Shown here piece by piece: positions 1-35,898 of a stretch of DNA of 46,515 bases. Within the stretch, counting starts at the first letter, position 1. The number at the start of each line of letters is the position of its first letter. Location: the IMG/VR virus record IMGVR_UViG_3300020190_000101, positions 1 through 46,515 of that record, one strand, 5' to 3'. Source of the stretch: a virus. Under the pieces are notes generated by a model that was not told where the DNA came from, did no database searches, and saw nothing but the letters and a program-made list of their open reading frames with translations. The position numbers were made by a program, and so were the translations under genes.

Positions 1-396
1 GAAGGTATTGATTGGGAAGAAAAGGACGGAGTGATTGAGATTCTTGACCCTGTGGAAGAAGCCGATATTGAAGTGGAAATAGAAGCCGAAGAGGCTGATG
101 AAGTGGAAGAATCGGTTGAAGTAGAAACCGAGATGATTAACGAGGCTTCTGCTAAACGCAAGATTGTGGTTCGTCGCGGCAAAAAGCGAATCATTTTCAA
201 GTGCGGGCCAGGCATGATGAAACGAGGCCCTCGCCTGTGTGTTCGTCGCCCAGGTTCACAACTCCGCAAGATGAAATTACGCTCCAAGCGTTCGGCTCGC
301 AAGGCTCGTTCCAAGCGTGGTGTGGCTAAAAGAAAGCGTAAACTGTCTATGCGTAAGCGGTTGTCGTTCGGCTTGCGTCCCCGCAAGCGAAAGTAA
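1..396 (+). CDS. Acidic/basic prohead-core-like protein, 5' end missing
   Basis: The frame is open from base 1, so the gene starts left of the window; a GTG at 31 has no ribosome site and is probably internal. The N-terminal half is almost all Glu/Asp/Val. The last 80 residues are extremely basic, rich in RSKR, RKRK and KRGVAKRKRK-type runs. The two halves meet at MINEAS (133-150), which fits the T4 gp21 prohead-protease consensus (L/I)xE before A/G/S. I infer an internal head or core protein whose acidic propeptide masks a DNA-binding basic part until capsid maturation. It precedes other proteins carrying such sites. No exact family is recognised; the polarity is clear and the function inferred. 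Confidence 0.6.
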   Translation, partial: EGIDWEEKDGVIEILDPVEEADIEVEIEAEEADEVEESVEVETEMINEASAKRKIVVRRGKKRIIFKCGPGMMKRGPRLCVRRPGSQLRKMKLRSKRSARKARSKRGVAKRKRKLSMRKRLSFGLRPRKRK

Positions 397-411
397 AGTG
401 AGATATACACC

Positions 412-1230
412 ATGATTCAATGTGATAAAAACGGCAACGGCGGAACGATTAGAGCAGTATCTCGTGGGCACGAAAACATTGTGGAGTTTTGGGTGTCTGA
501 TAGTGGTGCAAATCCTCTGACCCTGCGGATACGCGAACAGCACGGCAACGAGCCACGCATCACCAACGCAATAGTTGAAAGCCTGATTGAACGGTACACA
601 CCGCCCGTGATGTGGCTAACCACAGGAAACGCAGAACTGCGGTACACTCCGTTTTTCAACAACTCTCTGTATCGCTACACCACACGGGACGAAACCACTC
701 TGTACACTCGCCCGTTTGACGACGGGAAAGTGTTTTCACGAATATATTCACTTGCAGAAGCCATGAGCAACTACTCGCTTGTGCGTTCGCTGGACGAAGA
801 GTTGCAGATATTTGACAGATATGCAGTGCTATCTAAATTTAGACGGGCACTCAAACCACTAGAGTTTATCAGTATTAAAGAAGAAAGCGACCACAGCATT
901 CAGACAGTTTGTGTACACGCAACACGAACCATTCTTGAACACGGAAAGGAAACCGTAGATGCCACAGGCGAATACGCAAAAGGGTTTAGAGAAGTGTTGG
1001 CAGAATTGGCAGCGAAGCAAGAGGTTGCGGCGTATTCGTTTGATGCGAAAACAGCGTATGTGCGTGAGGTCGTGGCTGGAGTCTGTCTACCAGCAATCGT
1101 CCTTTTTGGCAGCAGGAACAAATTTACACAGGCTGTGACCGAAGCGTTTGCAAACGGAGCAGCACAGTACGCAAAAATATCTCAAGAATTACTAGACACT
1201 TACGAGGAAGCCCTAAAGTATTCAAAGTAA
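412..1230 (+). CDS. Hypothetical protein, 272 aa
   Basis: ATG at 412 lies 15 bases after the previous stop, with only a weak GTGAGA ribosome site. The protein has no signal peptide or clear membrane segment, mixed alpha/beta composition, and a C-terminal Ala-rich helical stretch beginning around VAGVCLPAIVLFG. I recognise no catalytic motif or family. It sits between a head-core-like protein and a small acidic protein in the plus-strand late block, so a virion or assembly role is likely by position only. Confidence 0.6.
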   Translation: MIQCDKNGNGGTIRAVSRGHENIVEFWVSDSGANPLTLRIREQHGNEPRITNAIVESLIERYTPPVMWLTTGNAELRYTPFFNNSLYRYTTRDETTLYTRPFDDGKVFSRIYSLAEAMSNYSLVRSLDEELQIFDRYAVLSKFRRALKPLEFISIKEESDHSIQTVCVHATRTILEHGKETVDATGEYAKGFREVLAELAAKQEVAAYSFDAKTAYVREVVAGVCLPAIVLFGSRNKFTQAVTEAFANGAAQYAKISQELLDTYEEALKYSK

Positions 1231-1237
1231 GCGTAAT

Positions 1238-1245
1238 GTTAAATA
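1238..1245 (+). promoter_or_regulatory. Candidate late promoter box GTTAAATA
   Basis: GTTAAATA matches six of eight bases of the T4 late -10 box TATAAATA and lies in the 55-base gap before the small gene at 1286. The same TAAATA core recurs in front of other genes in this window, which supports a promoter role. It is the weakest member of the set. Confidence 0.35.
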
Positions 1246-1285
1246 TTTTAGTGTAAACCAGTCTACATACTACTAGGAGAATACT

Positions 1286-1453
1286 ATGCCAAACATGAGA
1301 GACATGCTACTGTGGATGCAGCAGCAACAAAGCAAGCCTGAATTTGCCGCTGCCAAACGGTGGATGGAACGAAACCAAACTCCACTTCCTGAAAAGCCCA
1401 AGGCTACACCTGAAGTGGAAGCGGTTGACGAGGCTCCTGCCGACAACGAGTAA
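1286..1453 (+). CDS. Small hypothetical protein, 55 aa
   Basis: ATG at 1286 follows a good ribosome site (AGGAG at 1275-1279). The product starts MPNMRDMLLWMQQQQSKPEF and ends in a Pro/Glu/Ala-rich acidic tail. It is probably a helical N terminus with a disordered C terminus. The gene ends 3 bases before the nuclease at 1457, so the two are likely co-translated. The function is unknown. The ribosome site, position and lack of overlap make it a credible gene. Confidence 0.6.
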   Translation: MPNMRDMLLWMQQQQSKPEFAAAKRWMERNQTPLPEKPKATPEVEAVDEAPADNE

Positions 1454-1456
1454 GCC

Positions 1457-2122
1457 ATGAAAACTTTTCGTCATGCGTTCGTTGATATCAGCGGCGAAAT
1501 AAGTGCAAAGGAAGAAAACGGTAGCCGCCGTTACACCACACCTGATGGTGTGTTTCCGTCTGTCACTACAGTTACAGGATGGGCAAAGCGAGCGTTTTTT
1601 GCCAAGTGGCGGCGTGACAACCCTGAAGAATCACGCCGCATTTTGGCTCGTGGCACACGGGTTCATGCCATCATAGAAGACTACCTGCAAAACCGAGTGG
1701 AGTCCACTCTTACCGAAGCAGCAGGAACCGAAGAGTTGGACATGTTCCACACCATGCAACCGTACTTGGACTGTATTGACAATATTCGTGCCATTGAAGT
1801 GCCCCTGTGGTCAAAGAAAATTGGGCTTGCAGGTCGCACCGACTGTATTGCAGAATACAACGGTAATCTGTCTGTGGTTGACTTCAAGACTTCCAAGAAT
1901 CCCAAGAGCGAAGACGCAATCAGCGATTATTTTACACAGGGTGCTGCATACGCCCTTATGTGGCAAGACCTGACAGGGCAACGAGTAGACAATATTACAA
2001 TTATCATGGGTGTAGCCAGCACAGGCGAGTGCCAAGTGTTTGAAGCCCACACCCGTGATTGGGTGGAACCCCTCGTGGATGCCATAGCCCTGTGGCGGTC
2101 TGAACAGGTTTCTGTCGCCTAA
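1457..2122 (+). CDS. PD-(D/E)XK (RecB-type) exonuclease
   Basis: The 221 aa protein carries the RecB/MGME1-type nuclease signature in order: RGTRVHAIIEDYL (helix with conserved His), AGRTDCIAEY (metal-binding Asp), VVDFKTSK (the D/E-x-K active site) and YFTQGAAYALMW (Gln/Tyr motif). Such phage proteins are single-strand or end-trimming DNA exonucleases acting in recombination, repair or DNA processing. It has no helicase domain, so it acts alone or with a partner. It sits inside the virion block rather than beside the replication genes, which may mean a role in packaging or in processing incoming DNA. Family assignment is strong; exact polarity and role are unknown. Confidence 0.85.
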   Translation: MKTFRHAFVDISGEISAKEENGSRRYTTPDGVFPSVTTVTGWAKRAFFAKWRRDNPEESRRILARGTRVHAIIEDYLQNRVESTLTEAAGTEELDMFHTMQPYLDCIDNIRAIEVPLWSKKIGLAGRTDCIAEYNGNLSVVDFKTSKNPKSEDAISDYFTQGAAYALMWQDLTGQRVDNITIIMGVASTGECQVFEAHTRDWVEPLVDAIALWRSEQVSVA

Positions 2123-2125
2123 ATA
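2118..2125 (+). promoter_or_regulatory. Candidate late promoter box CCTAAATA
   Basis: CCTAAATA spans the stop codon of the nuclease gene and lies 14 bases before ATG 2140. Identical boxes occur at 4697, 13964 (minus strand), 13980 and 20612 (minus strand), each just before a gene. It fits a late -10 element; transcripts would have a very short leader. Confidence 0.45.
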
Positions 2126-2139
2126 ATGGGGTGAACCCC

Positions 2140-3357
2140 ATGAATTCATTTATTCCCTTTCTAGCGGAATCCCTCAAGAGCACAGGGGGCAAGAATGTGC
2201 ACTTGGAACACCTTGAAGACGAAATCTTCAACAGCGGGTTTGCAGGCTTTTCCAAGGCTATGAACTCTCTGCGTGGCGTGGTGCAGTCGCTATACGGCAA
2301 CGACACCGTGCCCTACGATATTTCTGTAAAGTGGGACGGTGCTCCTGCGGTTATTGTGGGCGTGAATCCCGAAAACGGCAAGTTCTTCGTGGGCACAAAG
2401 AGTGTGTTTAACGCTACACCTAAAATAAACTACACACCCGAAGACATTGACCGCAACCATCCCGCTGAAGGGTTGAATGCCAAACTTAAACTAGCACTTA
2501 AGTACTTCAAGACACTCCGCATCAGCACCATTCTGCAAGGCGACCTCCTGTTCGACAGCGAGACTCGCCGTAACGAAACCATTGACGGCAAGCGATACAT
2601 TACATTCCAACCCAACACCATTAAATACGCAGTTGACCCCAAGTCCCATTTGGGTACACGAATCGGTGCGGCTAAAATTGGAATTGTGTTTCATACAGAG
2701 TACGGTGGCAACAGCATGACAGACCTGCGTGTGGTAAAGTTCAATCCATCACTAGACGGATTAGCCAAAAGCCGAGCAGTGTGGTACGACAATGCCACCT
2801 ACCGATTTTCTCGTGGTGATGGTTTGTTTACTGCCAAAGACATTGGACACATCAACACACAAATAGACGATATTATTCGTGAGGGCATTGCACTACGAAG
2901 TGTAATGAACGGGCTAGCCAAAAATACCGCAGTGGTTGCAGAAATTAAAATGTATTTCAATGGCATCATCCGCACAGGGCGTGAGTTGGGAGACGCTAAT
3001 GAACTGCTGTCGTTCCTGTCTGCAAAGATTGATGCCAAGCGAAAAGAACGCAAAAGCAAGATTGCTGCCAAAACACCTACCCCTACATTGGATTATATTC
3101 GTGCCAACCGCAACCAAATCAATCGGTTGTTTGCACTACATAATCGTGTAGCACAGATCAAGAAGTATGTGCTAGGCAAACTAGGAACCTTGAGCACAGA
3201 GTTTGGAACATTTGTGCAAAAGGGTGACAAATATGTTGCAACGGTTCCCGAAGGATTTGTTGCAATAGACAGGTTGAGTAACGATGCGGTAAAATTAGTT
3301 GACCGTATTGAGTTCTCAAAGGCAAACTTCACGATTTCTAAATCGTGGAAACAGTAA
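2140..3357 (+). CDS. Ligase/nucleotidyltransferase-like head protein
   Basis: I choose ATG 2140 over the in-frame GTG at 2131 because it gives the N terminus MNSFIPFLAES. This matches the T4 internal-protein capsid-targeting peptide (MKTYxEFIxE, then cut) and ends in a prohead-protease site, LAE before S. Downstream, SVKWDGAPA (Lys about residue 64) resembles ligase motif I KxDG, ILQGDLLF (around 132) resembles motif III, and IGIVFHTEY (around 180) resembles motif IIIa. Convincing motifs IV and V are not visible. The C-terminal half is helical and basic. Similar proteins in marine T4-like phages are usually annotated hypothetical (DUF6267, from memory). I infer a divergent covalent nucleotidyltransferase carried in the head; function is unproven. 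Confidence 0.6.
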   Translation: MNSFIPFLAESLKSTGGKNVHLEHLEDEIFNSGFAGFSKAMNSLRGVVQSLYGNDTVPYDISVKWDGAPAVIVGVNPENGKFFVGTKSVFNATPKINYTPEDIDRNHPAEGLNAKLKLALKYFKTLRISTILQGDLLFDSETRRNETIDGKRYITFQPNTIKYAVDPKSHLGTRIGAAKIGIVFHTEYGGNSMTDLRVVKFNPSLDGLAKSRAVWYDNATYRFSRGDGLFTAKDIGHINTQIDDIIREGIALRSVMNGLAKNTAVVAEIKMYFNGIIRTGRELGDANELLSFLSAKIDAKRKERKSKIAAKTPTPTLDYIRANRNQINRLFALHNRVAQIKKYVLGKLGTLSTEFGTFVQKGDKYVATVPEGFVAIDRLSNDAVKLVDRIEFSKANFTISKSWKQ

Positions 3358-3399
3358 AGAGTTGGTGTACCGCGAGTGCATTACGGGAGGTGATCCAAA

Positions 3400-4683
3400 G
3401 TGGCTAAATCTGTAAAAGATACACGACGAAGCAAAACCATAGTGGTTGCTTTCGGTCGTTTTCAGCCACCAACTTCGGGACACCAACTCCTTTTCAACAA
3501 GGTGGTAGACACAGCGAAACGAATGGGAGCCGACCACGCGATTGGTTTCAGTCGCAGTCACGACCCCAAGAAGAATCCACTGTCACCATCTCGTAAGTAC
3601 TATTGGTTGAAACGCCTATTTCCAGGAGTACACTTCATAAATTCGGAAGACATAAAGACCCCGTTTGACCTGTTGTATAAACTGGCAGACATGGGGTACG
3701 AGCATGTGGTGTTTGTGGGTGGCGAAGACCGCAGAGAAGACTACGACGATTCCAACATTCGCAAACTCATAAAGCACCCTGACCCCAAGCACCGACTAAA
3801 ACTAAAACGATACGATTTTGTGATGGCAGGAAAGCGTGATGCCAAAGCCACAGGTGTACAAGGCATGAGTGCCAGTAAGATGCGAGCAGCAGTTGCCGAA
3901 GACGATAAAAAGTCTTTTGCTCGTGGAATGCCGTCTGCTGCGGGGCGTGACGATGTGGTGAAACTGTTTGATGAACTCAAGCGTGGTATGCGTGTAAAAC
4001 TCAAAGAAGACTTTGACTTTACAGAACTATACCACACCGCTGCTGCCAACCTGATTGAAAGCGACAAGTACAAGCGTCGTCCACCCACTCCCGGCGAGAC
4101 AGGTGGATTTTCCAAGCATAGTACCAAGTTTCCAACACCCCCGTGCAAGATTGACGAAGACTTGGGTGACTGGTTCAAGCAAAAATGGGTCAATATTGGT
4201 GGCAAGAAAGACCCCAAGACAGGGCAGTATCCACCGTGCGGTCGCAAGAGTGCAGACAGCAAAGGCCCGTATCCCAAATGCCGTCCGCTGCACCGCGTAG
4301 GCAAGACTCCTGAAACTGTGGGCGAGATGTCACCCAAGGAACGCAAAGCCGCAGTGCGTCAAAAGCGACGAGCCGAAGGCAAGACACCCAAGGCAGGCAA
4401 GGGCAACAAGCCCACCATGACTAGCCACAAAAACTTGGGTGAAGCCGCTTGCCCACGAAACCCACGAGGCACAGCCGAAGACACATGGGTAGCCGTAAAG
4501 AACGGACGGGTTAATTTTTATATTGGCTCGTGCACCCAACCGTACCAAACTTTCGGTGACGGCGATGCTGTTCAAGCCATTCGCTACGGTGAAGAGGTGT
4601 ATGTTACCCTTCGCAACGGCAAGATTCAAATATACAAAATTATGAACGGGCGGTCGGTTTATGGCCCTGTCCGCTCCATGTAA
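3400..4683 (+). CDS. NMNAT/cytidylyltransferase-like fusion protein
   Basis: GTG start at 3400 with a strong GGGAGG site at 3385-3390. Residues 12-190 form a nucleotidyltransferase-fold domain: GRFQPPTSGH (19-28) is the HxGH ATP site with Thr replacing the first His, and GMSASKMR (155-162) resembles the ISSTxxR loop. Around 256-325 is a small Cys-containing domain (DWFKQKWVNIGG, CGRKS, YPKCRPLHRV) seen in other phage and giant-virus proteins, possibly DUF5872. A beta-rich tail (about 355-427) follows. Linkers contain prohead-protease-like sites LIE/S (218-221) and LGE/A (346-349), suggesting packaging and cleavage. The likely reaction is nucleotide transfer, perhaps in NAD metabolism; the substrate is unknown. 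Confidence 0.75.
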   Translation: MAKSVKDTRRSKTIVVAFGRFQPPTSGHQLLFNKVVDTAKRMGADHAIGFSRSHDPKKNPLSPSRKYYWLKRLFPGVHFINSEDIKTPFDLLYKLADMGYEHVVFVGGEDRREDYDDSNIRKLIKHPDPKHRLKLKRYDFVMAGKRDAKATGVQGMSASKMRAAVAEDDKKSFARGMPSAAGRDDVVKLFDELKRGMRVKLKEDFDFTELYHTAAANLIESDKYKRRPPTPGETGGFSKHSTKFPTPPCKIDEDLGDWFKQKWVNIGGKKDPKTGQYPPCGRKSADSKGPYPKCRPLHRVGKTPETVGEMSPKERKAAVRQKRRAEGKTPKAGKGNKPTMTSHKNLGEAACPRNPRGTAEDTWVAVKNGRVNFYIGSCTQPYQTFGDGDAVQAIRYGEEVYVTLRNGKIQIYKIMNGRSVYGPVRSM

Positions 4684-4696
4684 GAGGAAAAAATAA

Positions 4697-4704
4697 CCTA
4701 AATA
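4697..4704 (+). promoter_or_regulatory. Candidate late promoter box CCTAAATA
   Basis: CCTAAATA in the 52-base gap before the gene at 4736. A short hairpin and an AAGGAA ribosome site follow it, giving a leader of about 25 bases. The box is identical to those at 2118, 13980 and 20612. Confidence 0.5.
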
Positions 4705-4706
4705 TA

Positions 4707-4721
4707 GAAAACCCAGTTTTC
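4707..4721 (+). other. Small 5' UTR hairpin
   Basis: GAAAAC, a 3-base loop CCA, then GTTTTC form a perfect 6-bp stem. It lies between the candidate late promoter and the ribosome site (AAGGAA) of the gene at 4736, so it would sit at the 5' end of that transcript. It could protect the message, as phage leader hairpins do. The stem is AT-rich and weak. Confidence 0.3.
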
Positions 4722-4735
4722 AAGGAACCCACTGC

Positions 4736-6232
4736 ATGGACACCGCTATCAAATCTAAACTACAAGCCCTGTTGCGTCTTGGTCTGGTTTCACAGAACAA
4801 TGTGCGTCGGGCTATGACTCTGTTCTCTGACCCCGAGCGTTACGCCCGCAGTCCTGCGTACCGCACACTCATGCAGGAAATCCTAGTGGATGTAGTGGAC
4901 ACCATTCTAAAGAATCGTGTACTGTACACCGCACTACGCTCGTCTCTATCCAAAACCAAAGGAGCCACCGATGCTTCAGAAACCGTTGCTGCTACTAGCC
5001 AAAAGTTGGGAGAAGGTATCGAAAGCGACCGCACAACTGCTCTCCTCCGTAGTGGCTTGGTGGACAAAGAGCAAATAACTGCTGCTCGCAAGGCTCTCAA
5101 GTCCAAGAGCAACATGAAGAGCATGAGCATGGGCAAAGTGTACCGTGAAATGATGATTAACATGTTGGACTCAATGGTAAAGAAGATTACAGGTAGCCCG
5201 TCCTTGTTCAACGCTTTCAAGTACACTATGGGCAAGGAAACTGTGGAAGAAGGTTTTGATTGGGGTTGCGAAGAAAGTATTGCACTCTGCGGACTCCACG
5301 AAGACGCACAAGAGATTCTTGAAGCCAACAAGCCCACCAATCCGTCGCTGTGGTCGCAAGCCAAGTCTGCTGCCAAGAGCAAGTTCAAGGTGTATCCGTC
5401 TGCTTACGCAAACGGTTGGGCAGTAAAGTGGTACAACTCCAAGGGCGGTGGATGGAAAAGCGTAAGCGAAGGCAAGAGTTTCTTTGATTTTGTTGGCGAT
5501 ATCCACGAAGCAGCAGCCGCAGGACAGATGACACCTGAAGAGCGTGAGATTTATCTAACCGCTGTGAACACCGAGAGCATCTACCGCTCACGCATTACTC
5601 CCATCATCAAGAACTACCAGCGTAAACTAGGCAAGGGCAAGTACAACCCTGAACTAGCGATTAAGGGATTTGTTTACGCAGTAGAAGACGCAATCAAAGA
5701 ATACGCCAAGACAGGCAGCAAGTTGCGTCTAACCAAGGAACAAAAGCACCGAGTTGCCAAAGAACTGCTAGACCACTACGCAGACGAGATTAACCTAAAA
5801 GAAGCCCATCAGATTGACGAGTTGAGCAAGAAGACACTTGCTTCATATGTTAAGGGTGCACACAGAAGTCAAGGCACTCACGAATGGGAAAGTGGAAACA
5901 AGGCAGCAAAGGGTGAGTACCACCAAAACAAAAAATACATCAAGCGTGAAATTGGAATCGGTCGTGCACTCAACCGTCTCCAAAAAGAAGCCCATCAGAT
6001 TGATGAAGCCGATTGGGGTGGTGGTTTTGAAACCTCCCGCGAGGCACAGGCTGGTGTTCAAGCAGGACTCAAGGCAGACGCTAAAAAGCGTAAGGCTATG
6101 ATTCTGTCGGCTATGCAGAAAGTGATTGACGGTCAAATGTCTAAAATTGCTTTCAAGAAGTTGACTGGTATGTCTTTCTCCGAAATGATGACACTCCCCG
6201 CATACACCAAGAAGTTGAAGACGAAAAAATGA
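4736..6232 (+). CDS. Modular virion-type protein with duplicated N-terminal domain
   Basis: This 498 aa Lys-rich protein is built of small modules. Two related helical segments (about 10-73 and 101-167) share ALLRxGLV, YRxxM and LFxAxK positions, so they look like a tandem duplication. Next comes a short domain with LWSQAKSAAKSKF and PSAYANGWAVKWY (about 202-240), a motif I associate with many phage proteins. A helical region and two KEAHQIDE linkers follow. Prohead-protease-like sites occur at LGE/G 91-94, ILE/A 194-197, IHE/A 256-259 and IDE/A 422-425. It overlaps the next gene by ATGA. I infer a structural or ejected head protein processed into pieces; no enzymatic motif is seen. Confidence 0.6.
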   Translation: MDTAIKSKLQALLRLGLVSQNNVRRAMTLFSDPERYARSPAYRTLMQEILVDVVDTILKNRVLYTALRSSLSKTKGATDASETVAATSQKLGEGIESDRTTALLRSGLVDKEQITAARKALKSKSNMKSMSMGKVYREMMINMLDSMVKKITGSPSLFNAFKYTMGKETVEEGFDWGCEESIALCGLHEDAQEILEANKPTNPSLWSQAKSAAKSKFKVYPSAYANGWAVKWYNSKGGGWKSVSEGKSFFDFVGDIHEAAAAGQMTPEEREIYLTAVNTESIYRSRITPIIKNYQRKLGKGKYNPELAIKGFVYAVEDAIKEYAKTGSKLRLTKEQKHRVAKELLDHYADEINLKEAHQIDELSKKTLASYVKGAHRSQGTHEWESGNKAAKGEYHQNKKYIKREIGIGRALNRLQKEAHQIDEADWGGGFETSREAQAGVQAGLKADAKKRKAMILSAMQKVIDGQMSKIAFKKLTGMSFSEMMTLPAYTKKLKTKK

Positions 6233-8757
6233 TTAAGAAGCAAGGCAACAAGTTTGTAGTAACCAACAAGGCAGGCACTAAAGTATTGGGAACACACGGC
6301 AGCAAGCAAAAGGCACAAAAGCAACTAGCAGCAATTGAAATTTCAAAGGCAAAACATATGCACGAAAACAAATCATTCAAGGCGTTCCGTTCGGCTCTAA
6401 ACGAGAGCGAGTACTCGGAAGTTCTCACAGGTTACGGCAACCGCTCTGCACACAAGGACGGTGCGGGTCTGCATCACCTACAGTCTGCGGGTGCTCTTGC
6501 AGGCATCAATGCCATGCTTGCCACCATCGGCAAGGGCACATACCTTGACCCTAACGAAGCGTTCCTCAAGATGAAGGTGCGTCTAAATGTGGTGCAACTA
6601 GACTTCCCGTGGACTCCCCGTTCGTGGGACGGTGGCGTTGGTTCCTACGATATTCCTGTGGTGCAGTTTGGTCGCGTTGACGGCTACGACGCAAAAACAG
6701 GCGAGATTCGTTTTGACGGCAAGGCTAACCCCACAGGCGGATACACCGAACTGAATCTCCATGTGGATGTGGAACTCACCCCTGAATCGCTGTATGTGGT
6801 GACTGCTAAACTCACCCCATCAGTAGCCGTTGCAGAAAGCGTAGAGTCGGTGAAGGAAGAAACCGAAATTGATGAAGACTACCAAACTCCTGCTCGTGAA
6901 CGCGAACTTGCCAGAAAAATAGAGAAGCACGAAGACATTGCACAGCGTGGATACTCCGCTAGAATGACGAAGACAGGCAAGGCGGCAAAGCGTGGTGAAA
7001 AACTAGAAACCAAGCACGACGCTGCTTCACTCCGTCTACTCAAGCGTTCACGAAAAGAAGAAGAGTCACCCCGCACCTACGGTCGCGGTGGCAAACTTGT
7101 AAAGCGTGGTAGCCGTCACGAGGTCAAGGAAGAGATTGAGCAGATTGACGAGTTGAGCAAGGGCACAAAGGACGCATATGTTGCCAAGCGTGGCTCGCAA
7201 CTGTCGTCCATGCTGAGTGGACACAAGCATAGCAAGCAACTAACTGGCCCACAGCAAGCCAATGCCGTGAAGGGCATCAAGCGGGCTACTGGTGTCAAGG
7301 AAGAGGTTGAGATTGAGGAAGGTATAATTCGTGATACTGTTCAACGAGTCAAGAACAAACTGCATGGAGCAGGTGGATACACAGACAAAGAACTGGCAGC
7401 AATGCCAAAGCGTGTGTTTTATCCTGCAAGCCCTGCTGGTGAGCGGAAGAACAAGTTGATAGACTCCAAAAAGCCAGGAGACATATGGAAAACCAAAACG
7501 GACAGTTTTGGTCAACACAGGATAGGTGCAAAGAACAAATATGGTGAGGTTCGCTACTTTAGAAGTGGAAACAAAAAAATGGCAAAGAAGTGGAGTACTG
7601 GTGTCAAGGAAGAGGTTGAGGTTTCAGAAGAGTGGAAGTCTCTCAAAAAGACTAAAGCCGACCTGAATGCCATTCGTGCAAGTGGCAAGAAGGTAAGCGT
7701 TCAGCACGGTGAAGGCGATACCTTGTACCGCGTTTCCAAAGCCAAGAAGTCTGTCAAGGAAGATGTACAGACTGCTGAACGCAAGACAGAGATGAAGGCA
7801 AAGATAGCCGCTGCTTCAAAGAAGGAAAACAGAGCGAGTGAGGACTGGTGGAATGCGGCAGACGGCAGTAAGAAATACAAAAAAGCAGAAGCAAGTCATA
7901 AAGCGGCACAAGATGCACGGGCAAAGTTGATTGCTCAATACGCTAAAGAAAAGAAAGATGAAACCAAACTCTACGGCAAGGGTGGCAAGGTCGTAGCAAA
8001 GCGTAAGTGGAGTCCCGTGAAGGAAGAGATTGAGCAGATTGACGAGTTGAGCAAGAAGATTCTTGGCTCATATGTCAAGAAGGCTGCAAAGGATATTGAA
8101 GACCTCAGTTCTGATGCTGAATTTTATGGAAGAAATTCACAGTACCAAGAATTTGATAAAACTAGGGCTAAAATAAGACAACGCCACGCTGGTGTTGGTA
8201 AAGCCGTGAGGCGTATGACGAAGGAAGAGATTGAGCAGATTGACGAAGCAGGGCAAGCCAAACTAGAGCGTCTTGGCAAAGCCTACGACAAGGCACGAAT
8301 CGGCTCTCGCGGTGTTCTGAACCCTGAAAACAAGAAGCGTCTTGGTGATGCGTACTTCAAGATGCGTGACAAGGTTCTAGACAAGCGAAAGAAGCGTATT
8401 GAAAGCGGCACTTTCGACAAGGAAGCCGAAGTAAAGGCTGTGGTTGCAAAGAACAGAGGCACATTCGGCAAGGTGTTTGGCAAGAAGACCGTAAAGGAAG
8501 AACTGGTTGGCGGTCAGAAGAAACTTGACCTAAACAAGAACAAGCGTCTTGACTCACAGGATTTTGCTCTGCTTCGTGCCAAGAAGAAAAAGCCTATGGC
8601 TGAAGCCAAGACTAAGCAGTGGACTCCTCGCTTGGACAAACTAGTAGACAACCGTGATGCTGTTCGCAGCAAGCCCAAGAAAACCATCCTGACTCAAAAG
8701 GTGCAGGACGGCAAAAAGGTTGGTTCGGCTCGCCCCATCCGCAAGTACGAAGGATGA
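6229..8757 (+). CDS. Repeat-rich modular protein with KEE-IDE linkers
   Basis: The 842 aa product is highly charged and modular. It opens with a short basic module (about 1-42, KVLGTHGSKQKAQKQLAAIE). Then KSFKAFRSALNES (LNE/S at 57-60) resembles a capsid-targeting/cleavage peptide. A beta-rich domain with PWTPRSWDGG follows to about residue 200. The rest is at least eight segments separated by (V/T)KEE linkers, several reading EIEQIDELSK; IEE/G (362-365) and IDE/A (671-674) fit the prohead-protease consensus. Near the C terminus DLNKNKRLDSQD (767-778) matches a single EF-hand or dockerin calcium loop. It overlaps both neighbours by ATGA. It is probably a processed, DNA-associated or ejected head protein; function is inferred. 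Confidence 0.6.
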   Translation: MIKKQGNKFVVTNKAGTKVLGTHGSKQKAQKQLAAIEISKAKHMHENKSFKAFRSALNESEYSEVLTGYGNRSAHKDGAGLHHLQSAGALAGINAMLATIGKGTYLDPNEAFLKMKVRLNVVQLDFPWTPRSWDGGVGSYDIPVVQFGRVDGYDAKTGEIRFDGKANPTGGYTELNLHVDVELTPESLYVVTAKLTPSVAVAESVESVKEETEIDEDYQTPARERELARKIEKHEDIAQRGYSARMTKTGKAAKRGEKLETKHDAASLRLLKRSRKEEESPRTYGRGGKLVKRGSRHEVKEEIEQIDELSKGTKDAYVAKRGSQLSSMLSGHKHSKQLTGPQQANAVKGIKRATGVKEEVEIEEGIIRDTVQRVKNKLHGAGGYTDKELAAMPKRVFYPASPAGERKNKLIDSKKPGDIWKTKTDSFGQHRIGAKNKYGEVRYFRSGNKKMAKKWSTGVKEEVEVSEEWKSLKKTKADLNAIRASGKKVSVQHGEGDTLYRVSKAKKSVKEDVQTAERKTEMKAKIAAASKKENRASEDWWNAADGSKKYKKAEASHKAAQDARAKLIAQYAKEKKDETKLYGKGGKVVAKRKWSPVKEEIEQIDELSKKILGSYVKKAAKDIEDLSSDAEFYGRNSQYQEFDKTRAKIRQRHAGVGKAVRRMTKEEIEQIDEAGQAKLERLGKAYDKARIGSRGVLNPENKKRLGDAYFKMRDKVLDKRKKRIESGTFDKEAEVKAVVAKNRGTFGKVFGKKTVKEELVGGQKKLDLNKNKRLDSQDFALLRAKKKKPMAEAKTKQWTPRLDKLVDNRDAVRSKPKKTILTQKVQDGKKVGSARPIRKYEG

Positions 8758-14232: not shown

Positions 14233-14309
14233 AACCCCATTGCTCGGGCAAGCAGTACACCCACGCAAAAACTAATACCACACACTAGGGCTTTCTGTAG
14301 TCTACTCAT
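14229..14309 (-). CDS. Possible 26-aa membrane peptide
   Basis: The ATG overlaps the stop of the protease gene (ATGA), suggesting coupled translation. The product starts MSRLQKALVCGISFCVGVLL and ends RAMGF: a short basic head and one hydrophobic segment long enough to enter a membrane. It converges with, and overlaps the stop of, the coiled-coil gene. The short length makes chance likely; the coupling and hydrophobicity argue for it. Confidence 0.3.
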   Translation of the reverse strand: MSRLQKALVCGISFCVGVLLARAMGF

Positions 14310-15082
14310 GGGGCTATCCTTATGGGCACACCAGAAAGGTCTAGTGCTGTGGCTTGTATCCAGTCTGCAACCAAATCTAAACGGGTGGCAGAGTTCTCAA
14401 ACACTCGGCTGTCGCAAATGGCTAGAGAAGACACCACTCCAACCAGAATGCCGTTTGCGTCAATCACCGCACCACCAGAGTCTCCAAAGAAAACAGTGGT
14501 TTCGTGCCTGTACATTTTAAAGCATGTGGGGTCTTCAATCAGGGTTCCGTAATACGCAAATTCACCCCATTTGCTGCGGCGTTTGTAGTCACCACCAAAT
14601 CCAATCACGGTTAGTGGTTCGCCTCGTGTGTACCGATTGGTGTCAGGATTCAACAGGGGAATGGGTGTGGCAGGGCACGGCTTTTCCAGTACTGCAACAG
14701 CCACATCCATGAAAATAGTGTCGCCAACCTTGAACTTGGGGTGCAACTTGTAGTCTGCTATTTTATACAACTCACACCCTGCTTTGAAGTGGGTCACATC
14801 ACCGTTTTCTAGGCAATGCCCTGCGGTAAGAACTACTCGCGGTGCAATCAGGACAGCACTGCCTATTTCGCAGCCGTCCCGTGTAACTAATTCACCCACC
14901 GCAAGTTCTTCTGTTTGCTCGTCCAGTAGGGAAAATCCGTCCATGAACCACGGGAGGGTTGTGAGGGATTTCCCTACTGGAGATTCCTGTGGTGTGTCGT
15001 ATACCGACACCGATGCCTCGTCACATGCCCCGAAGAGTAGTGAGAGGGCTAGCAGAAGAGATGTAACTCCTGCTCTCTGCAT
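14306..15082 (-). CDS. Secreted trypsin-like (S1) serine protease, lipoprotein
   Basis: 258 aa. The N terminus (MQRAGVTSLLLALSLLFGAC) is a lipoprotein signal with Cys 20 at the lipobox. The S1 triad is intact: VVLTAGHC (His 89), DVAVAVLE (Asp 126) and GDSGGA (Ser 202). Several Cys residues (71, 90, 103, 136, 187, about 223) could form disulfides, consistent with export. It would act at the periplasm or cell surface, perhaps shaving outer-membrane proteins, blocking superinfection, or aiding lysis. S1 proteases are unusual in phages. It has no close tail partner; a methyltransferase lies upstream beyond a terminator. Enzyme class is confident, role is not. Confidence 0.85.
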   Translation of the reverse strand: MQRAGVTSLLLALSLLFGACDEASVSVYDTPQESPVGKSLTTLPWFMDGFSLLDEQTEELAVGELVTRDGCEIGSAVLIAPRVVLTAGHCLENGDVTHFKAGCELYKIADYKLHPKFKVGDTIFMDVAVAVLEKPCPATPIPLLNPDTNRYTRGEPLTVIGFGGDYKRRSKWGEFAYYGTLIEDPTCFKMYRHETTVFFGDSGGAVIDANGILVGVVSSLAICDSRVFENSATRLDLVADWIQATALDLSGVPIRIAP

Positions 15083-27333: not shown

Positions 27334-28149
27334 TCAAGACTCCGAAACGAAATCCAAAACTGACTTATTATTTTGTCTATGTGAGTTCACATTTTTAGAA
27401 TTTATGTTTACCACATCCAATTTAAAGTCAGGTATGCTGTTGAGCAAATAATATTTGCCGTCTTTACCTTGTTGTTTCCACACCAAATCAGCGTGTTTTG
27501 GGTATCCTGTATTCCATTCAACTGTAGAATTTTTTAGTTCACGCTTGGCTGTTTTGTTCAGGGGCATGATGTATCGAAACTGCTTACCTTTGACTCTGCG
27601 TATACCTTTTATGTGCATGAAATCAGGAGTCAGCCAAAACACTTTAGATTTGCCTAATAGTTTTGCATTCTCTGCACACAAAGACTTTGATGTTCGTGGG
27701 TGAATTTTCTCTCCGTCTGCTCCGATATACACATCAGTCCAAATGAAACCTCCGTACAGAAAGTTTGCAGACTGATACACATATCCAGGTTTCCCAACAA
27801 TTCCGTCAGCCCATGTGTACAAAAACTTTTTGTTGGGTGTGTGTATTTTCATCCATCGAATCACGCCTGAAAGCATTTGTGACTCTGAATTTCTTGGCAT
27901 ATCAGGAGCCATACACATCTTGCCAATTTCGTAGTAGTCCGCAGAAGTACAAGACGGAAACAGTTTTTTGATTGTGTGTAGTGGTTGTGTTCCCCACCCA
28001 AGAGTCAGAACGCCAACAAGAGTTTCCCCGTTATACACACCAAGGTAGTGTTTGGTGAGGCGAGGCATAACCTTGGAGTAGTGGTGTTGTTGTACAAAGT
28101 CCACCGCTATCGCTTTGGGTATCTCTGTTATTTGAAACGAATACTTCAT
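27334..28149 (-). CDS. Mom-like GNAT-fold DNA modification protein
   Basis: 271 aa. FVQQHHYSKVMPRLTKHYLG, LVGVLTLGWG, DYYEIGKMCM and TWADGIVGKPGYVYQSANFL match the phage Mu Mom pattern (HHY near the N terminus, then a D...GxxYQxxNF block). Mu Mom adds a carbamoylmethyl group to adenine N6, shielding DNA from restriction. The gene sits between the polymerase C-terminal piece and the LSm-like gene, is AT-richer than both, and has a GATAAATA box 14 bases before its ATG, so it looks like an inserted late gene. No good ribosome site is visible. A second Mom-like gene is at 34984. Confidence 0.7.
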   Translation of the reverse strand: MKYSFQITEIPKAIAVDFVQQHHYSKVMPRLTKHYLGVYNGETLVGVLTLGWGTQPLHTIKKLFPSCTSADYYEIGKMCMAPDMPRNSESQMLSGVIRWMKIHTPNKKFLYTWADGIVGKPGYVYQSANFLYGGFIWTDVYIGADGEKIHPRTSKSLCAENAKLLGKSKVFWLTPDFMHIKGIRRVKGKQFRYIMPLNKTAKRELKNSTVEWNTGYPKHADLVWKQQGKDGKYYLLNSIPDFKLDVVNINSKNVNSHRQNNKSVLDFVSES

Positions 28150-28176: not shown

Positions 28177-29148
28177 TCACACGAAAAGTGATTCTAAAGT
28201 ACTCTCTTGTTCAGTTTTCCATCCAATCGCATTTGTAATACTGCGGAGTGGTTCAAGAAATGCTTTATCAAATTGCATTTCCCAATTCACATATTTTGTT
28301 AGACCGAATTCAGGAGGCAGGGTAGTCGTAAAACCAACCACATGCTCGTGAATAGGATTAGGAGTCTTCAAATAGATAAACTTAATCTTTTCGCCTTCGC
28401 CAATAATCCTGTACTTCTTGCCCAACTTTTGCTTACGCACCAAGTGGTTGTGGAGCAGGGCGGCTTTCACCGCAATAGGTGTGGATTTACGATATACGCA
28501 TTGTGAGTCTTTATACCCGTCCAATCCGTTTGCAGAACGGGGAAACGCCATTGATTCAGGAGGCAGGGCTTTGAATTCTTCACGAGTGCTTTTCACAAAT
28601 GCCTGTAGTGTAGTCTCGTCTTGCAGCAGCACCATCTCAACGGCTTTCTTTAGAACTTTACGAACCCACGCAGGAGTACTGGAACGGGTGGTTTCAATAC
28701 CCATGATTTTGAACTTGGGGGTCTTGTACTGCACACCCTCGCTGTTCCACACCGAAAGCATGTACCGCTTCTTGGCAGTCCACACACCCTTCTGTGCAAT
28801 CACTTCCCGCCCCATTACCATCTTGTTGCTGTACGCATTCATTACATCCGCAAGACTGGCAAACTCTTTGTCAATAAACGGCTGCAAGATGCGGTCGCAG
28901 AAACGATTCAAAAAGTCCACAACCTTTTCAGGTTCGTGCTCGCCCTTGAACGACTGCTTGACTGCTTCACCCAATCGCAAGTACACAGAGTCGGTGTCGC
29001 TTGCAATCACATAGTCTTGCCCATCCGTCTTGAATATCTTGTTTAGATACCTGTTGAGTGCTTCGCCAATCCATTGAATGCTTAACTGCCCCGACAGGGT
29101 AATAGCCTCTGCAAGTGCCACATCAAAGAAACGGAAGTACTCGTTACC
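28177..29148 (-). CDS. Family B DNA polymerase, C-terminal segment
   Basis: Reading from the GGT at 29148, the frame gives GNEYFRFFDVALAEAITLSG, then the palm motif VIASDTDSVYL (motif C, DTDS), thumb signatures KIMGIETTRSSTPAWVRKVL and a C-terminal TLESLFV tail like T4 gp43. There is no ATG near the start; GTG 29121 would omit FRFFD. The preceding 39 codons of the same conserved region lie in another frame (29148-29267), separated by five extra bases that include TAG. With a hop it adds 322 residues to the 39-residue part. Without one, it would need internal initiation and would lack part of the fingers. Homology is certain, expression is not. Confidence 0.85.
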   Translation of the reverse strand, partial: GNEYFRFFDVALAEAITLSGQLSIQWIGEALNRYLNKIFKTDGQDYVIASDTDSVYLRLGEAVKQSFKGEHEPEKVVDFLNRFCDRILQPFIDKEFASLADVMNAYSNKMVMGREVIAQKGVWTAKKRYMLSVWNSEGVQYKTPKFKIMGIETTRSSTPAWVRKVLKKAVEMVLLQDETTLQAFVKSTREEFKALPPESMAFPRSANGLDGYKDSQCVYRKSTPIAVKAALLHNHLVRKQKLGKKYRIIGEGEKIKFIYLKTPNPIHEHVVGFTTTLPPEFGLTKYVNWEMQFDKAFLEPLRSITNAIGWKTEQESTLESLFV

Positions 29149-29267
29149 TAACCAATCGCACCGTAGGCAGAGTTCAGTTGGATTTTTCTAACCAACTGAA
29201 AATTACGATATTTTGAGATATCGTATTCTGTCTGCCTACGAAGCGATTGCAATTCCTCCGTAGTCAT
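29148..29267 (-). CDS. Family B DNA polymerase, fingers segment ending in motif B
   Basis: A 39-codon frame. ATG 29267 overlaps the homing endonuclease stop (ATGA). It starts MTTEELQSLRRQTEYDISKY and ends RKIQLNSAYGAIG before TAG at 29150-29148. This is the KxxxNSxYGxxG fingers helix of T4-type polymerases; the expected next residues, NEYFRFFD, are encoded five bases on. The stop interrupts one of the most conserved motifs of the enzyme. The sequence from 29249 to 29153 is also a perfectly paired RNA structure. It is probably joined to the C-terminal frame by ribosomal bypassing; alternatives are a third polypeptide or an inactivating mutation. Confidence 0.8.
   Translation of the reverse strand: MTTEELQSLRRQTEYDISKYRNFQLVRKIQLNSAYGAIG
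29153..29249 (-). other. Three-way-junction RNA structure in polymerase coding sequence
   Basis: Helices on the minus-strand RNA: P1a 29249-29243 with 29159-29153 (7 bp); a 2x2 internal loop; P1b 29240-29231 with 29171-29162 (10 bp, CGTAGGCAGA with TCTGCCTACG); P2 29225-29218 with 29211-29204 (8 bp, 6-base loop); P3 29200-29192 with 29181-29173 (9 bp, 10-base loop). All pairs are Watson-Crick. P1a ends on the first base of the GGT codon that precedes the TAG stop. Chance pairing of this extent within a conserved coding region is very unlikely. Confidence 0.75.
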
Positions 29268-29980
29268 TTTTGAGTAATTTGTTGACATAACCATCCTTTT
29301 GAACGACCTCTGTTTGGTGTAATACCATTCTTACTGGTTTTCCACAATGTAGTATACGCTAAATTTCTACTGATGCAAAATTCTTCCAATCTATTTGTTT
29401 GGTGTTCTTTTCCACTTGGGTCTATAATTTTAAACCAAGAAGATAGAGCATCTCTCATTTTTGATTTGTTTTTTCTCCAATGGTTTTTTGATTTTTTACT
29501 GATGATTTTCTTAAACGATGATGGTCTTGTAGAACCATTATTTTTTTCTGTTGCTTTTTTTAGATTTGTAATTGCTATTTGCTTGTATTTGTATGGATTC
29601 ATGCTTTTTGTTTTTTTAACAGCAGATACACATTTCCTGACAGTTTTTGGGTTTTTCATGGCATTGTTTTTGCCAAGATTTATTCCCATTTTGTTCACAT
29701 AGTCCCATCCACCAATTCCTCCTGTTTTTATGTTGTAACAGGAAGGATTGTTTATATGTTCTGCTATTATCTTTTGTTCTTGTTCATACATTTCTTCTCT
29801 TGATGAACACATAGATAGTATTTCTTTTTTGAATGCTTCTTTTCCATATTTTTCTATGGCTTTGTTTAATACTGTCCCACTGCCAAGATAAGAGTCGTTT
29901 TCGTTGTCTGTTTCATGTGCACCGATGTAAAACTTTTTGTTTATCTTGTTGGTTGTCTTGTAAATTAAATACTTTCTCAT
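29264..29980 (-). CDS. GIY-YIG homing endonuclease
   Basis: 238 aa. The N-terminal catalytic domain has YLIYKTTNKINKKFYIG (GIY-YIG variant, Y...YIG), the following YLGSGTVLNKAIEKYG with EKYG motif, and EMYEQEQKIIAEH (metal-binding Glu). A basic linker (KKTKSMNPYKYKQIAITNLK) and a C-terminal helix-turn-helix-like region (WFKIIDPSGKEHQTNRLEEF, ISRNLAYTTLWK) bind DNA. The gene is strongly AT-rich, has its own TATAAATA box and GGAGG site, and splits the polymerase gene. It is a free-standing mobile endonuclease; there is no room for a group I intron around it. Confidence 0.9.
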   Translation of the reverse strand: MRKYLIYKTTNKINKKFYIGAHETDNENDSYLGSGTVLNKAIEKYGKEAFKKEILSMCSSREEMYEQEQKIIAEHINNPSCYNIKTGGIGGWDYVNKMGINLGKNNAMKNPKTVRKCVSAVKKTKSMNPYKYKQIAITNLKKATEKNNGSTRPSSFKKIISKKSKNHWRKNKSKMRDALSSWFKIIDPSGKEHQTNRLEEFCISRNLAYTTLWKTSKNGITPNRGRSKGWLCQQITQK

Positions 29981-29995
29981 AATTTCCTCCGAAAG

Positions 29996-30003
29996 TATTT
30001 ATA
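29996..30003 (-). promoter_or_regulatory. T4-consensus late promoter TATAAATA
   Basis: An exact TATAAATA on the minus strand, in the 41-base gap between the polymerase N-terminal stop and the endonuclease ATG at 29980, followed by CGGAGGAAATT. Known phage homing endonuclease genes often carry their own late promoter, so this fits an imported control region. Confidence 0.75.
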
Positions 30004-30021
30004 ACCAATGGCACTTACAAA

Positions 30022-31518
30022 CTAAAGTATCCCTCTCTTTTTTAGTTCCTCTTCTATTTCCACTAATTTCTTCTCTGATTGAAGCATCAATTGCTTGAAC
30101 CGCTTGCGTTCCTCGTACATGATTTCCATGAGTTCAGGCAGGAACCCGTGACGGTCTTTGCGGAACGCCACACCGTTGGCAGCAATAGACAGTTTGCTCT
30201 GTTTGGCGTGGTTCAAGTATTCCGCAGGGTCAAGAAACGCGGTGACAGGCTCGCCACGATTCCTGCTCAAGATGGAGTCGGGTGTAATATTGTTCCGCTT
30301 CCACAGGGGGCTAGCGTCTTTGGTTTCAGGTGAAATATTGTACTGCATGATAAGATGTGGGTACAGTGAGTTCAAGTCAAAACTCACCACCCAATCGTGC
30401 ATTCCCACAAGGGGGTCTTTCACATACGCACCCGCGTACTGTTCCTTCTTTTCCGCTTCACGCTTCTGTGGAACCACCATGCCCTTGCTCATCAGGTGGT
30501 GATGAATAATGGCATCCCATGTGCGAACCTGTGAGAACACATCCTCAAAGTTTACTCGGGCAGAATACGCAAGAGCAACCGCAAGGTCAAGCAGTTTTAG
30601 TTTCTCTTCCAGTTTGGCAACCAGTTCCACATCCTTGTAGTTGTACTCCATGAACTTTTGGAAGTTCTGTGTGTAGAACTCTTGCAGGGTTTCGTACTCG
30701 CTATACGACAACTTTTCCTCGCCCAACTCCACCGAACACACATGGTTGAGTGAGTACGACTCTTGCTTCACATAGGTAAACTTTAGGTACAACTCCAAGT
30801 AGTCAAGGGTGGACACGCCACCAATAGTAAACACCCGTTGGTCGCGTCCCATTCGGTTCACGGTGGTTTCACGCAGCCGCCCCCACGGTGAAAGGGCGTT
30901 TGCCCACTCGTCCGCAATCCAATTCATGCGAGCCACCATGTACGGAATATCAAAGAATCGGATGTTCCATCCTGTCACAATGTCAGGGTCTTCGTGCTTC
31001 CAAATCTCCACGAATCGTCGGAGCAGCGACTCCTCATCGGCAAAGCACTCTGCTTCCACACCTTCCAGTGTGAAATCACCAAGCCCAAGCACATAGGTCT
31101 TGCTGCCCACCGTGAGGGTAATAGCAATGATGCGTTCGGTTGGGGAATCAGGCGACGGGAAGCCGCCGTCGCACGAAGTCTCAATATCCAAGTACGCCAC
31201 ACGCAGACGGGAGAAGTCGTACTCTACTTCGTGCGGAAACTCTTTATACAAGTACTGATATACGAAACTTGTGTTGCCGTACACTTCAAAGTTGCTGACA
31301 TCCTTGTACTGGTCAATAAACTGCCGTGCTTCGTGAACCCCTTCAAAAGTAATGGGTTCCACGGGATTGCCGTAGATGGTGGTGAGTCCTGTGTGTTCTT
31401 TAGATTTGATATACAGCGTTGGGCAGAACGGCACGGCTTCGTGTACACGACACCCGTTTCGCCATCCGCGATACAGCACATTCTTGCCACGAAGGTCAAC
31501 GCTTGTATAGAAGTCCAT
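30022..31518 (-). CDS. Family B DNA polymerase, N-terminal segment (exonuclease and palm motif A)
   Basis: 498 aa. The 3'-5' exonuclease motifs are RVAYLDIETS (ExoI), DIVTGWNIRFFDIPY (ExoII) and EYNYKDVELV (ExoIII). Polymerase motif A is VSFDLNSLYPHLIMQYNISP. The protein stops after ERKRFKQLMLQSEKKLVEIE...KKRGIL, in the helical fingers region, where T4-like polymerases continue without a break. The missing part resumes at 29267 after the homing endonuclease. N and C parts together would be about 859 aa, close to T4 gp43 (898). ATG 31518 overlaps the methyltransferase stop (TAATG). Confidence 0.92.
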   Translation of the reverse strand: MDFYTSVDLRGKNVLYRGWRNGCRVHEAVPFCPTLYIKSKEHTGLTTIYGNPVEPITFEGVHEARQFIDQYKDVSNFEVYGNTSFVYQYLYKEFPHEVEYDFSRLRVAYLDIETSCDGGFPSPDSPTERIIAITLTVGSKTYVLGLGDFTLEGVEAECFADEESLLRRFVEIWKHEDPDIVTGWNIRFFDIPYMVARMNWIADEWANALSPWGRLRETTVNRMGRDQRVFTIGGVSTLDYLELYLKFTYVKQESYSLNHVCSVELGEEKLSYSEYETLQEFYTQNFQKFMEYNYKDVELVAKLEEKLKLLDLAVALAYSARVNFEDVFSQVRTWDAIIHHHLMSKGMVVPQKREAEKKEQYAGAYVKDPLVGMHDWVVSFDLNSLYPHLIMQYNISPETKDASPLWKRNNITPDSILSRNRGEPVTAFLDPAEYLNHAKQSKLSIAANGVAFRKDRHGFLPELMEIMYEERKRFKQLMLQSEKKLVEIEEELKKRGIL

Positions 31519-34983: not shown

Positions 34984-35898
34984 TTATTTTCCTCGTTCTT
35001 TAGGATACTGCTTGGGTGGATTACGCCCCTCAAACTCCCGCCGCAACTTCTTGGTTTCGGCTTTGGTAGCACCCAACACAAAAGCGTACTTGTGCTTGCT
35101 GGGCATCTGAATCTTTTGGGATTGGCTCTGCTTGGTCTTGCTGTGGGCACGAAGTTGTGCTTCCACCCCCGCAGGCACATTCTCCCACAACATGCGTTGG
35201 TCGTTGTTCCAATCCCGTTCCCACTTGATGCCCAACTCTTTGGCGTATTTCTTGTACGCACTACGCACACGGAAAAAGCGGTCGCTTACAACCTTGCCTG
35301 TGTACGGATTGATGTACCGTGTGGTGGTTCCTGACTCCTGCCCCAAGTAGTACCAGTTACACGCTTGGTAAATGGTTCCCAACTCTTTGGCAGTAGGGTC
35401 AGAGTACGCGGTGAACAGGCGATATGGTGTATTCTTCACCATCCACCCACAGCACCACATAAGGAATGAACTTGCAAGATTCTTGGGACTCCACGACACA
35501 CACGCACCACGGCTAACCAACCGCTCTAGTGTTTTGGTGTCTTCACCCAACAGTTTGGAAAATGCGTTGGGCATGTTCATCAGGATGACTCCTGCCATGA
35601 TGTCTTTGCCAATCAGCCCTTGATTGGGGTCGTGGTAGTACGCACCAAACCAGTGTGTGGTGTACTGTGACAGGTTGCCCAACCACTCGTGTCGCTTAAT
35701 GAACGCTACGGCTTGGGCACGGTCTTGGGGAGTTGTTAGCGGTCGGAATACAAAATCAGAAACCCGAAGGGCTTGTGCAGCGGCTTCGGTTAGTCCTGCG
35801 GCTTTCAGGTCGTCTTCGCGGTTGCGTAGACGAATATCGTATTGCCAGCAGTGGTCTTTGTTGTATTCCCGCAGACACGGGTTTTCGGTTTCACTCAC
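34984..35898 (-). CDS. Second Mom-like GNAT-fold protein
   Basis: 304 aa from GTG 35898 (GTGA overlap with the previous stop, GGAG five bases upstream). IKRHEWLGNL, LVSRGACVSWSPKNLASSFL and FTAYSDPTAKELGTIYQACN carry the Mom-type AYSD...GxxYQAxN block, as in the gene at 27334 (ADG...GYVYQSANF). The C-terminal third (KHKYAFVLGATKAETKKLRR) is basic and may bind DNA. It lies beside SpeD and the methyltransferases. I infer a role in adenine hypermodification or a related acyl transfer; the substrate is unknown. Confidence 0.6.
   Translation of the reverse strand: MSETENPCLREYNKDHCWQYDIRLRNREDDLKAAGLTEAAAQALRVSDFVFRPLTTPQDRAQAVAFIKRHEWLGNLSQYTTHWFGAYYHDPNQGLIGKDIMAGVILMNMPNAFSKLLGEDTKTLERLVSRGACVSWSPKNLASSFLMWCCGWMVKNTPYRLFTAYSDPTAKELGTIYQACNWYYLGQESGTTTRYINPYTGKVVSDRFFRVRSAYKKYAKELGIKWERDWNNDQRMLWENVPAGVEAQLRAHSKTKQSQSQKIQMPSKHKYAFVLGATKAETKKLRREFEGRNPPKQYPKERGK

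What the first reader, a model, noticed from the sequence alone, without database searches (positions are those of the whole stretch)
1..8757. A series of virion-block proteins with prohead-protease-like sites
The sites INE/A, LAE/S, IRE/G, LIE/S, LGE/A, LGE/G, ILE/A, IHE/A, IDE/A (twice), LNE/S and IEE/G fit the T4 gp21 rule (L/I)xE before A/G/S. They often lie at module borders, and MNSFIPFLAES at 2140 mimics the T4 capsid-targeting peptide. Chance would give roughly half as many, so number alone is not proof. If real, a ligase-like protein, an NMNAT-like enzyme and several DNA-binding pieces would be packed, cut and ejected with the genome.
Basis: partly seen in the sequence, partly recalled or inferred. 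Interest (0 to 1): 0.75.

Follow-up and report, generated by a model that had tools for sequence, protein, structure and literature searches.

The report
Phage proteins tagged for head packaging
A stretch of a T4-like aquatic phage encodes an enzyme-like protein and strings of basic proteins that carry the short tag and cut sites T4 uses to load proteins into its head; tagged relatives have been found in particles of related phages, so the puzzle of metabolic enzymes in phage particles becomes directly testable.

Summary
All the listed sites exist. The rule [LI]xE|[AGS] is met 16 times in the block's seven proteins against 5.6 expected by shuffling; the window's other genes give 18 against 16.4.

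The strongest case is the DUF6267 protein starting at ATG 2140, MNSFIPFLAE|S. It matches T4's capsid-targeting sequence at the four positions shown by experiment to matter (4, 7, 8, 10). In 47 homologues these positions are conserved and those between them vary. Cyanophage NMNAT homologues carry the same tag, and tagged NMNATs were detected in three published virion proteomes.

Several internal sites also hold up: LIE|S in the NMNAT protein (8 of 8 relatives), INE|A in ORF1, LNE|S in the 842-aa protein, and ILE|A before a DUF5872-type module. That module has [LIVM]xE directly in front in 27 of 36 embedded copies and 0 of 51 stand-alone copies. Other listed sites are lineage-specific or not conserved.

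Cleavage, presence in this phage's particles, and ejection are untested, and the window's own NMNAT has no tag.

The parts
1..396 (+). ORF1 (5' end outside the window): acidic N-terminal half, very basic C-terminal half
   Evidence: phrog_33445; net charge -22 for residues 1-48 and +38 for 49-131
136..147 (+). INE|A, predicted prohead-protease site at the acidic/basic border of ORF1
   Evidence: INE|A or LNE|A in all four relatives with the gene
2140..3357 (+). DUF6267 protein with an N-terminal tag; possible nucleotidyltransferase/ligase-like enzyme
   Evidence: PF19782 E=4e-97; KWDG at 64-67 invariant in 47 sequences; no significant fold match, capping enzymes and ligases recur among sub-threshold hits
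2140..2169 (+). Capsid-targeting propeptide MNSFIPFLAE, predicted cut after E10
   Evidence: Positions 4, 7, 8, 10 conserved in 47 homologues; T4 determinants; residues 1-23 disordered in the model
3400..4683 (+). NMNAT/cytidyltransferase domain followed by a basic tail with the C-terminal half of DUF5872; no N-terminal tag
   Evidence: phrog_3041 and PF19197; N-terminus
4051..4062 (+). LIE|S, predicted cut between the NMNAT domain and the basic tail
   Evidence: LIE/IIE/LLE/ILE/LAE followed by S in 8 of 8 relatives
4736..6232 (+). 498-aa modular basic protein
   Evidence: Net charge +25; five rule matches against 1.3 by shuffling; contains phrog_27331 module
5006..5017 (+). LGE|G site
   Evidence: LGE or IGE followed by G, A or S in close relatives
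5315..5326 (+). ILE|A site directly before the module
   Evidence: ILE, LLE or LME at the same point in relatives; [LIVM]xE directly before 27 of 36 embedded copies of the module and 0 of 51 stand-alone copies
5324..5470 (+). ANKPTNP...YPSAYANG basic module (N-terminal half of DUF5872)
   Evidence: PF19197, below cut-off here, above it in a stand-alone relative
6229..8757 (+). 842-aa modular basic protein with acidic separators
   Evidence: Net charge +69; modules +8 to +18 between separators of -3 to -4; phrog_3684 N-terminus
6397..6408 (+). LNE|S site in KAFRSALNE|SEYSEVL
   Evidence: LNE|S or LTE|S in the six relatives aligned there
6853..6876 (+). Separator KEETEIDE
7126..7152 (+). Separator KEEIEQIDE
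7297..7320 (+).
   Evidence: lineage-specific
7606..7629 (+). Separator KEEVEVSE
8020..8046 (+). Separator KEEIEQIDE
8221..8247 (+).
   Evidence: IDE|A or VDE|A in two relatives

Best explanation
The block is a cargo module of a T4-like phage. DUF6267 carries a capsid-targeting propeptide that binds the prohead core and is then removed by the phage's gp21-type protease. The neighbouring NMNAT-basic-tail protein, ORF1 and two strings of basic modules carry protease sites at domain or charge borders and would be cut in the same prohead, leaving enzymes and small DNA-binding pieces packed with the genome and probably delivered with it. Shown here: the tag and its conservation, site enrichment, conservation of several sites, charge and module layout, a gp21 homologue in a close relative, and virion detection of tagged relatives in other phages. 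Inferred: the cleavage, presence in this phage's own particles, ejection, and the enzyme roles (ligase-like DUF6267, NAD synthesis by NMNAT).
For: Tag positions 4, 7, 8, 10 conserved in 47 homologues while neighbours vary, matching the T4 determinants; T4 IPII and IPIII fit the same expression. NMNAT tag M-x-F-x-[QE]-F-[IL]-x-E|A across cyanophage NMNATs. Virion detection of tagged NMNAT in S-CREM2, S-SZBM1 and S-SCSM1, and of tagged SAM hydrolase, kinase and a 78-aa protein in S-CREM2. 6 of 10 tagged genes detected, stratified P=0.004. Untagged DUF6267 of S-SZBM1 not detected while the adjacent tagged NMNAT was. Conserved LIE|S, INE|A and LNE|S; module border statistic; gp21 homologue in G001.
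Against: No cleavage was observed anywhere. No virion proteome is known for this phage or for any phage with a tagged DUF6267. The window's NMNAT has no tag. Site retention in G001 does not differ clearly from controls. An LxEA-like stretch also persists in the exonuclease, probably for structural reasons. Four of ten tagged genes in the three proteomes were not detected.
Confidence: 0.7

Rival explanations
1. Only the N-terminal tags are real. The internal LxE matches arise from E-rich, helical or linker sequence between modules and are not cut; the polyproteins are full-length basic virion proteins.
For: Several listed sites are not conserved; retention in G001 is similar in control genes; residues after separators are often L, D or E.
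Against: Conserved LIE|S with changing P3 and P2 in 8 relatives; LxE exactly at the module border in 27 of 36 embedded and 0 of 51 stand-alone copies; 16 matches against 5.6.
Confidence: 0.3
2. The enzymes seen in relatives' virions are abundant contaminants of CsCl preparations and the N-terminal motif serves some other purpose.
For: The authors of the S-CREM2 and S-SCSM1 papers raise contamination themselves.
Against: Detection goes with the tag across three phages (P=0.004), and the conserved positions are those that target proteins in T4.
Confidence: 0.1
3. The proteins enter the prohead as core or scaffold parts and are degraded or expelled at maturation, so nothing is delivered to the next host.
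For: T4 scaffold and core proteins are mostly degraded by gp21 (PMC9026906); the G001 scaffold has many LxE sites.
Against: Relatives of NMNAT and of the modular proteins are detected in mature virions.
Confidence: 0.15

Closest known systems
T4 internal proteins IPII/IPIII with capsid-targeting sequence and gp21 processing
   Same: N-terminal M-x-x-[FY]-x-x-F-[LI]-x-E tag followed by a predicted cut; gp21-type protease in a close relative
   Different: The cargo is a DUF6267 enzyme-like protein and modular basic proteins instead of T4's small internal proteins
Virion-associated NMNAT/cytidylyltransferase of cyanophages S-SZBM1, S-SCSM1 and S-CREM2
   Same: Same NMNAT domain family; in S-SZBM1 the same gene order DUF6267, NMNAT, basic protein
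   Different: In those phages the tag is on NMNAT; in the window it is on DUF6267 and NMNAT has none
Multiply cut head proteins of giant phages (phiKZ, SPN3US, 201phi2-1)
   Same: Many head proteins cut after a short motif ending in E by the phage protease (PMC9026906)
   Different: Not compared by sequence here; the repeated KEExEQIDE separators between shuffled basic modules were not found described

Membership tests
T4-type capsid-targeted internal protein (DUF6267) | N-terminal tag with the determinants at residues 4, 7, 8, 10 | tested here: met
T4-type capsid-targeted internal protein (DUF6267) | gp21-type prohead protease in the same phage | tested here: inconclusive
   Absent from this fragment; present in the close relative G001
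T4-type capsid-targeted internal protein (DUF6267) | Propeptide removed by gp21 | not testable with these tools
   Needs protein N-terminus data
T4-type capsid-targeted internal protein (DUF6267) | Present in mature virions | tested here: inconclusive
   Tagged relatives of other families detected; the only DUF6267 checked against a proteome (S-SZBM1) is untagged and undetected
T4-type capsid-targeted internal protein (window NMNAT) | N-terminal tag | tested here: not met
   Starts MAKSVKDTRRSKTIVVAFGRF
Polynucleotide ligase / nucleotidyltransferase (DUF6267) | KxDG nucleotidyl-lysine motif | tested here: met
   KWDG invariant in 47 sequences
Polynucleotide ligase / nucleotidyltransferase (DUF6267) | Fold or profile match to ligases or capping enzymes | tested here: inconclusive
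   No PDB hit at E<=0.001; ligases and capping enzymes recur below significance

The most novel reading that the evidence does not exclude
T4-like aquatic phages build strings of small basic virion proteins as polyproteins with repeated acidic KEExEQIDE or other LxE separators cut by the prohead protease, so that modules can be shuffled and several DNA-binding or delivered proteins are loaded from one gene, alongside enzymes that carry capsid tags.
Probability: 0.45. Interest if true: 0.75.

Novelty: new variant of a known kind. Interest (0 to 1): 0.6.

Why it matters
NMNAT-like and other enzymes keep turning up in cyanophage virions, and the authors could not say whether they are cargo or contamination. 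A T4-type targeting tag on those same proteins gives a mechanism and predicts exact mature N-termini that can be looked for in data that already exist. It also gives a sequence rule for finding delivered proteins in T4-like phages, and a first role for DUF6267 and DUF5872-type modules, for which the library held almost no literature.

Tried and rejected
A profile trained on DUF6267 tags and scored on S-CREM2 was too narrow (P=0.05); an expression based on T4's four determinants was used instead, chosen after seeing S-CREM2, so the pooled P value is somewhat optimistic. Site retention in G001 did not separate block from control genes. A first, too strict pattern for the YPSAYAN module missed embedded copies and was replaced. 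The PDB sequence search with the DUF6267 profile gave only ferritins at E=0.05, taken as chance. Pfam and PHROGs gave no function for the tagged neighbours in G001. Nucleotide search of the phage collection found nothing. IRE|G, IEE|G and the matches in the exonuclease and the 272-aa gene were rejected as likely processing sites.

Full report
What the window is. The window is a whole IMG/VR record of 46,515 bases, a fragment of a T4-like phage genome, with no tRNA genes and no prohead protease match. Annotated homologues of the block lie mainly in Kyanoviridae-type phages. A 147-kb relative, G001, matches the DUF6267 gene at 83% identity and holds a Peptidase_S77 (gp21) gene, followed by a scaffold gene dense in LxE sites and a gp23-like gene.

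Observation. In the seven block proteins the rule [LI]xE[AGS] occurs 16 times against 5.6 +/- 2.3 after shuffling; none of 3000 shuffles reached 16. The 32 minus-strand genes give 18 against 16.4. The last four proteins alone give 12 against 4.0.

The tag. T4 work established that gp21 cuts after [LI]xE and that IPIII residues 4 and 7 direct targeting while 8 and 10 direct processing (PMC9026906). The window protein begins M-N-S-F4-I-P-F7-L8-A-E10|S. Nearly all complete N-termini among 80 IMG/VR homologues show this pattern. In an alignment of 47, position 4 is F in 43 (L or Y in the rest), position 7 is F or Y in 46, position 8 is L or I in 47 and position 10 is E in 47, while 5, 6 and 9 vary. 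The extension is disordered in the model and is missing from S-SZBM1 and S-PM2 homologues that keep the domain. T4 IPII and IPIII fit the same expression; T4 IPI keeps F4 and F7.

Virion mass spectrometry in relatives. The S-CREM2 virion table (PMC10665884) includes a SAM hydrolase, a kinase, a 78-aa protein and an NMNAT, all four starting with the tag; a Cas9-annotated protein has a similar stretch further in. S-SZBM1 (PMC9146016) and S-SCSM1 ('virion protein' labels in the record; PMC9602691) add two tagged NMNATs. Over the three genomes 6 of 10 tagged annotated genes were detected, against overall rates of 14-23%, stratified exact P=0.004. The undetected four encode 55 to 165 aa. The expression was settled after S-CREM2 had been seen, so P is somewhat optimistic. 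In S-SZBM1 the untagged DUF6267 was not detected while the adjacent tagged NMNAT was. Among 45 distinct NMNAT N-termini from IMG/VR, 40 match strictly; of the other five, one is a near match, two match when read one residue upstream, and two were retrieved without their N-terminus. The authors of two of these papers left open whether the enzymes were contaminants.

Internal sites. Conservation was read in up to eight loci. NMNAT residue 220 is LIE, IIE, LLE, ILE or LAE followed by S in all, between the enzyme domain and the basic tail. ORF1 keeps INE|A or LNE|A where charge flips from -22 to +38. The 842-aa protein keeps LNE|S or LTE|S at residue 59 in the six relatives aligned there. The 498-aa protein keeps LGE or IGE at 93 in close relatives, and ILE or LME at 196 with a variable next residue. 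IRE|G in DUF6267, IEE|G in the 842-aa protein and IVE|S in the 272-aa gene do not persist. As a caution, an LxEA-like stretch also persists in the exonuclease, and retention in G001 was 10/14 for the block and 7/14 for controls.

Modules. The ANKPTNP...YPSAYANG module after site 196 is the N-terminal half of DUF5872. Of 87 distinct copies, 36 have more than 45 residues upstream and 27 of these have [LIVM]xE directly in front; 51 are stand-alone or N-terminal and none has it. In a few stand-alone genes the initiator methionine sits exactly there (for example L138, M|ANKPTNP). Copies are related, so the Fisher P of 4e-15 overstates the case, but the sequences upstream differ. The 842-aa protein is a string of basic modules divided by acidic separators such as KEEIEQIDE, and other phages have the same design with other modules. 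S-CREM2 gp160, detected in virions, has LSE|A, LEE|K and ISE|G before its modules.

The tagged neighbourhood. Beyond the window's left edge G001 has a run of same-strand genes starting MKDIFAFLKE|A, MKRFVSYLSE|A, MKSFRAHLHE|A, MKGFSNYLTE|A, MNTFRSYLTE|L and MIDFRSYLTE|V; none has a known function.

Mechanism and limits. Most likely, tagged proteins enter the prohead core, gp21 removes the tag and cuts the strings, and the products are packed with DNA and delivered. This rests on conservation and on proteomes of relatives. How the untagged NMNAT of this lineage would enter is unknown. A role in rebuilding NAD against NAD-depleting defences is a guess prompted by other phages (PMC12774641 abstract). 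The literature searches found no paper joining capsid-targeting sequences to cyanophage enzymes; the library is incomplete, and PMC9026906 already proposes the tag as a general way for T4-like phages to load diverse proteins.

Noticed in passing
window 28177-31518, minus strand: The DNA polymerase is split into two frames (30022-31518 and 28177-29121) with a homing-endonuclease-like gene (29264-29980) between them: an intron, intein-like insertion or split gene.
   Followed up: no
window 14306-15082, minus strand: A protease-like protein (phrog_9683); the syntenic G001 protein (L004:18259-19026, minus) looks like a secreted trypsin-like lipoprotein with a GDSGGA motif.
   Followed up: no
window 27334-28149 and 34984-35898, minus strand: Two genes matching Mom-like DNA modification proteins (phrog_1384), near DNA methyltransferase-like genes.
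   Followed up: no
G001, L004:46-2559 and L088:10310-12240: A cluster of consecutive genes of unknown function whose products all begin with a capsid-targeting-like tag.
   Followed up: partly
S-CREM2 gp6, gp12, gp13, gp14 (L092): SAM hydrolase, Cas9-annotated protein, 78-aa protein and kinase detected in virions carry the tag or a tag-like stretch.
   Followed up: partly
L138-L205: Many stand-alone small basic proteins with the PTNP...YPSAYAN module in viral contigs, often with a KKK-rich N-terminus.
   Followed up: partly
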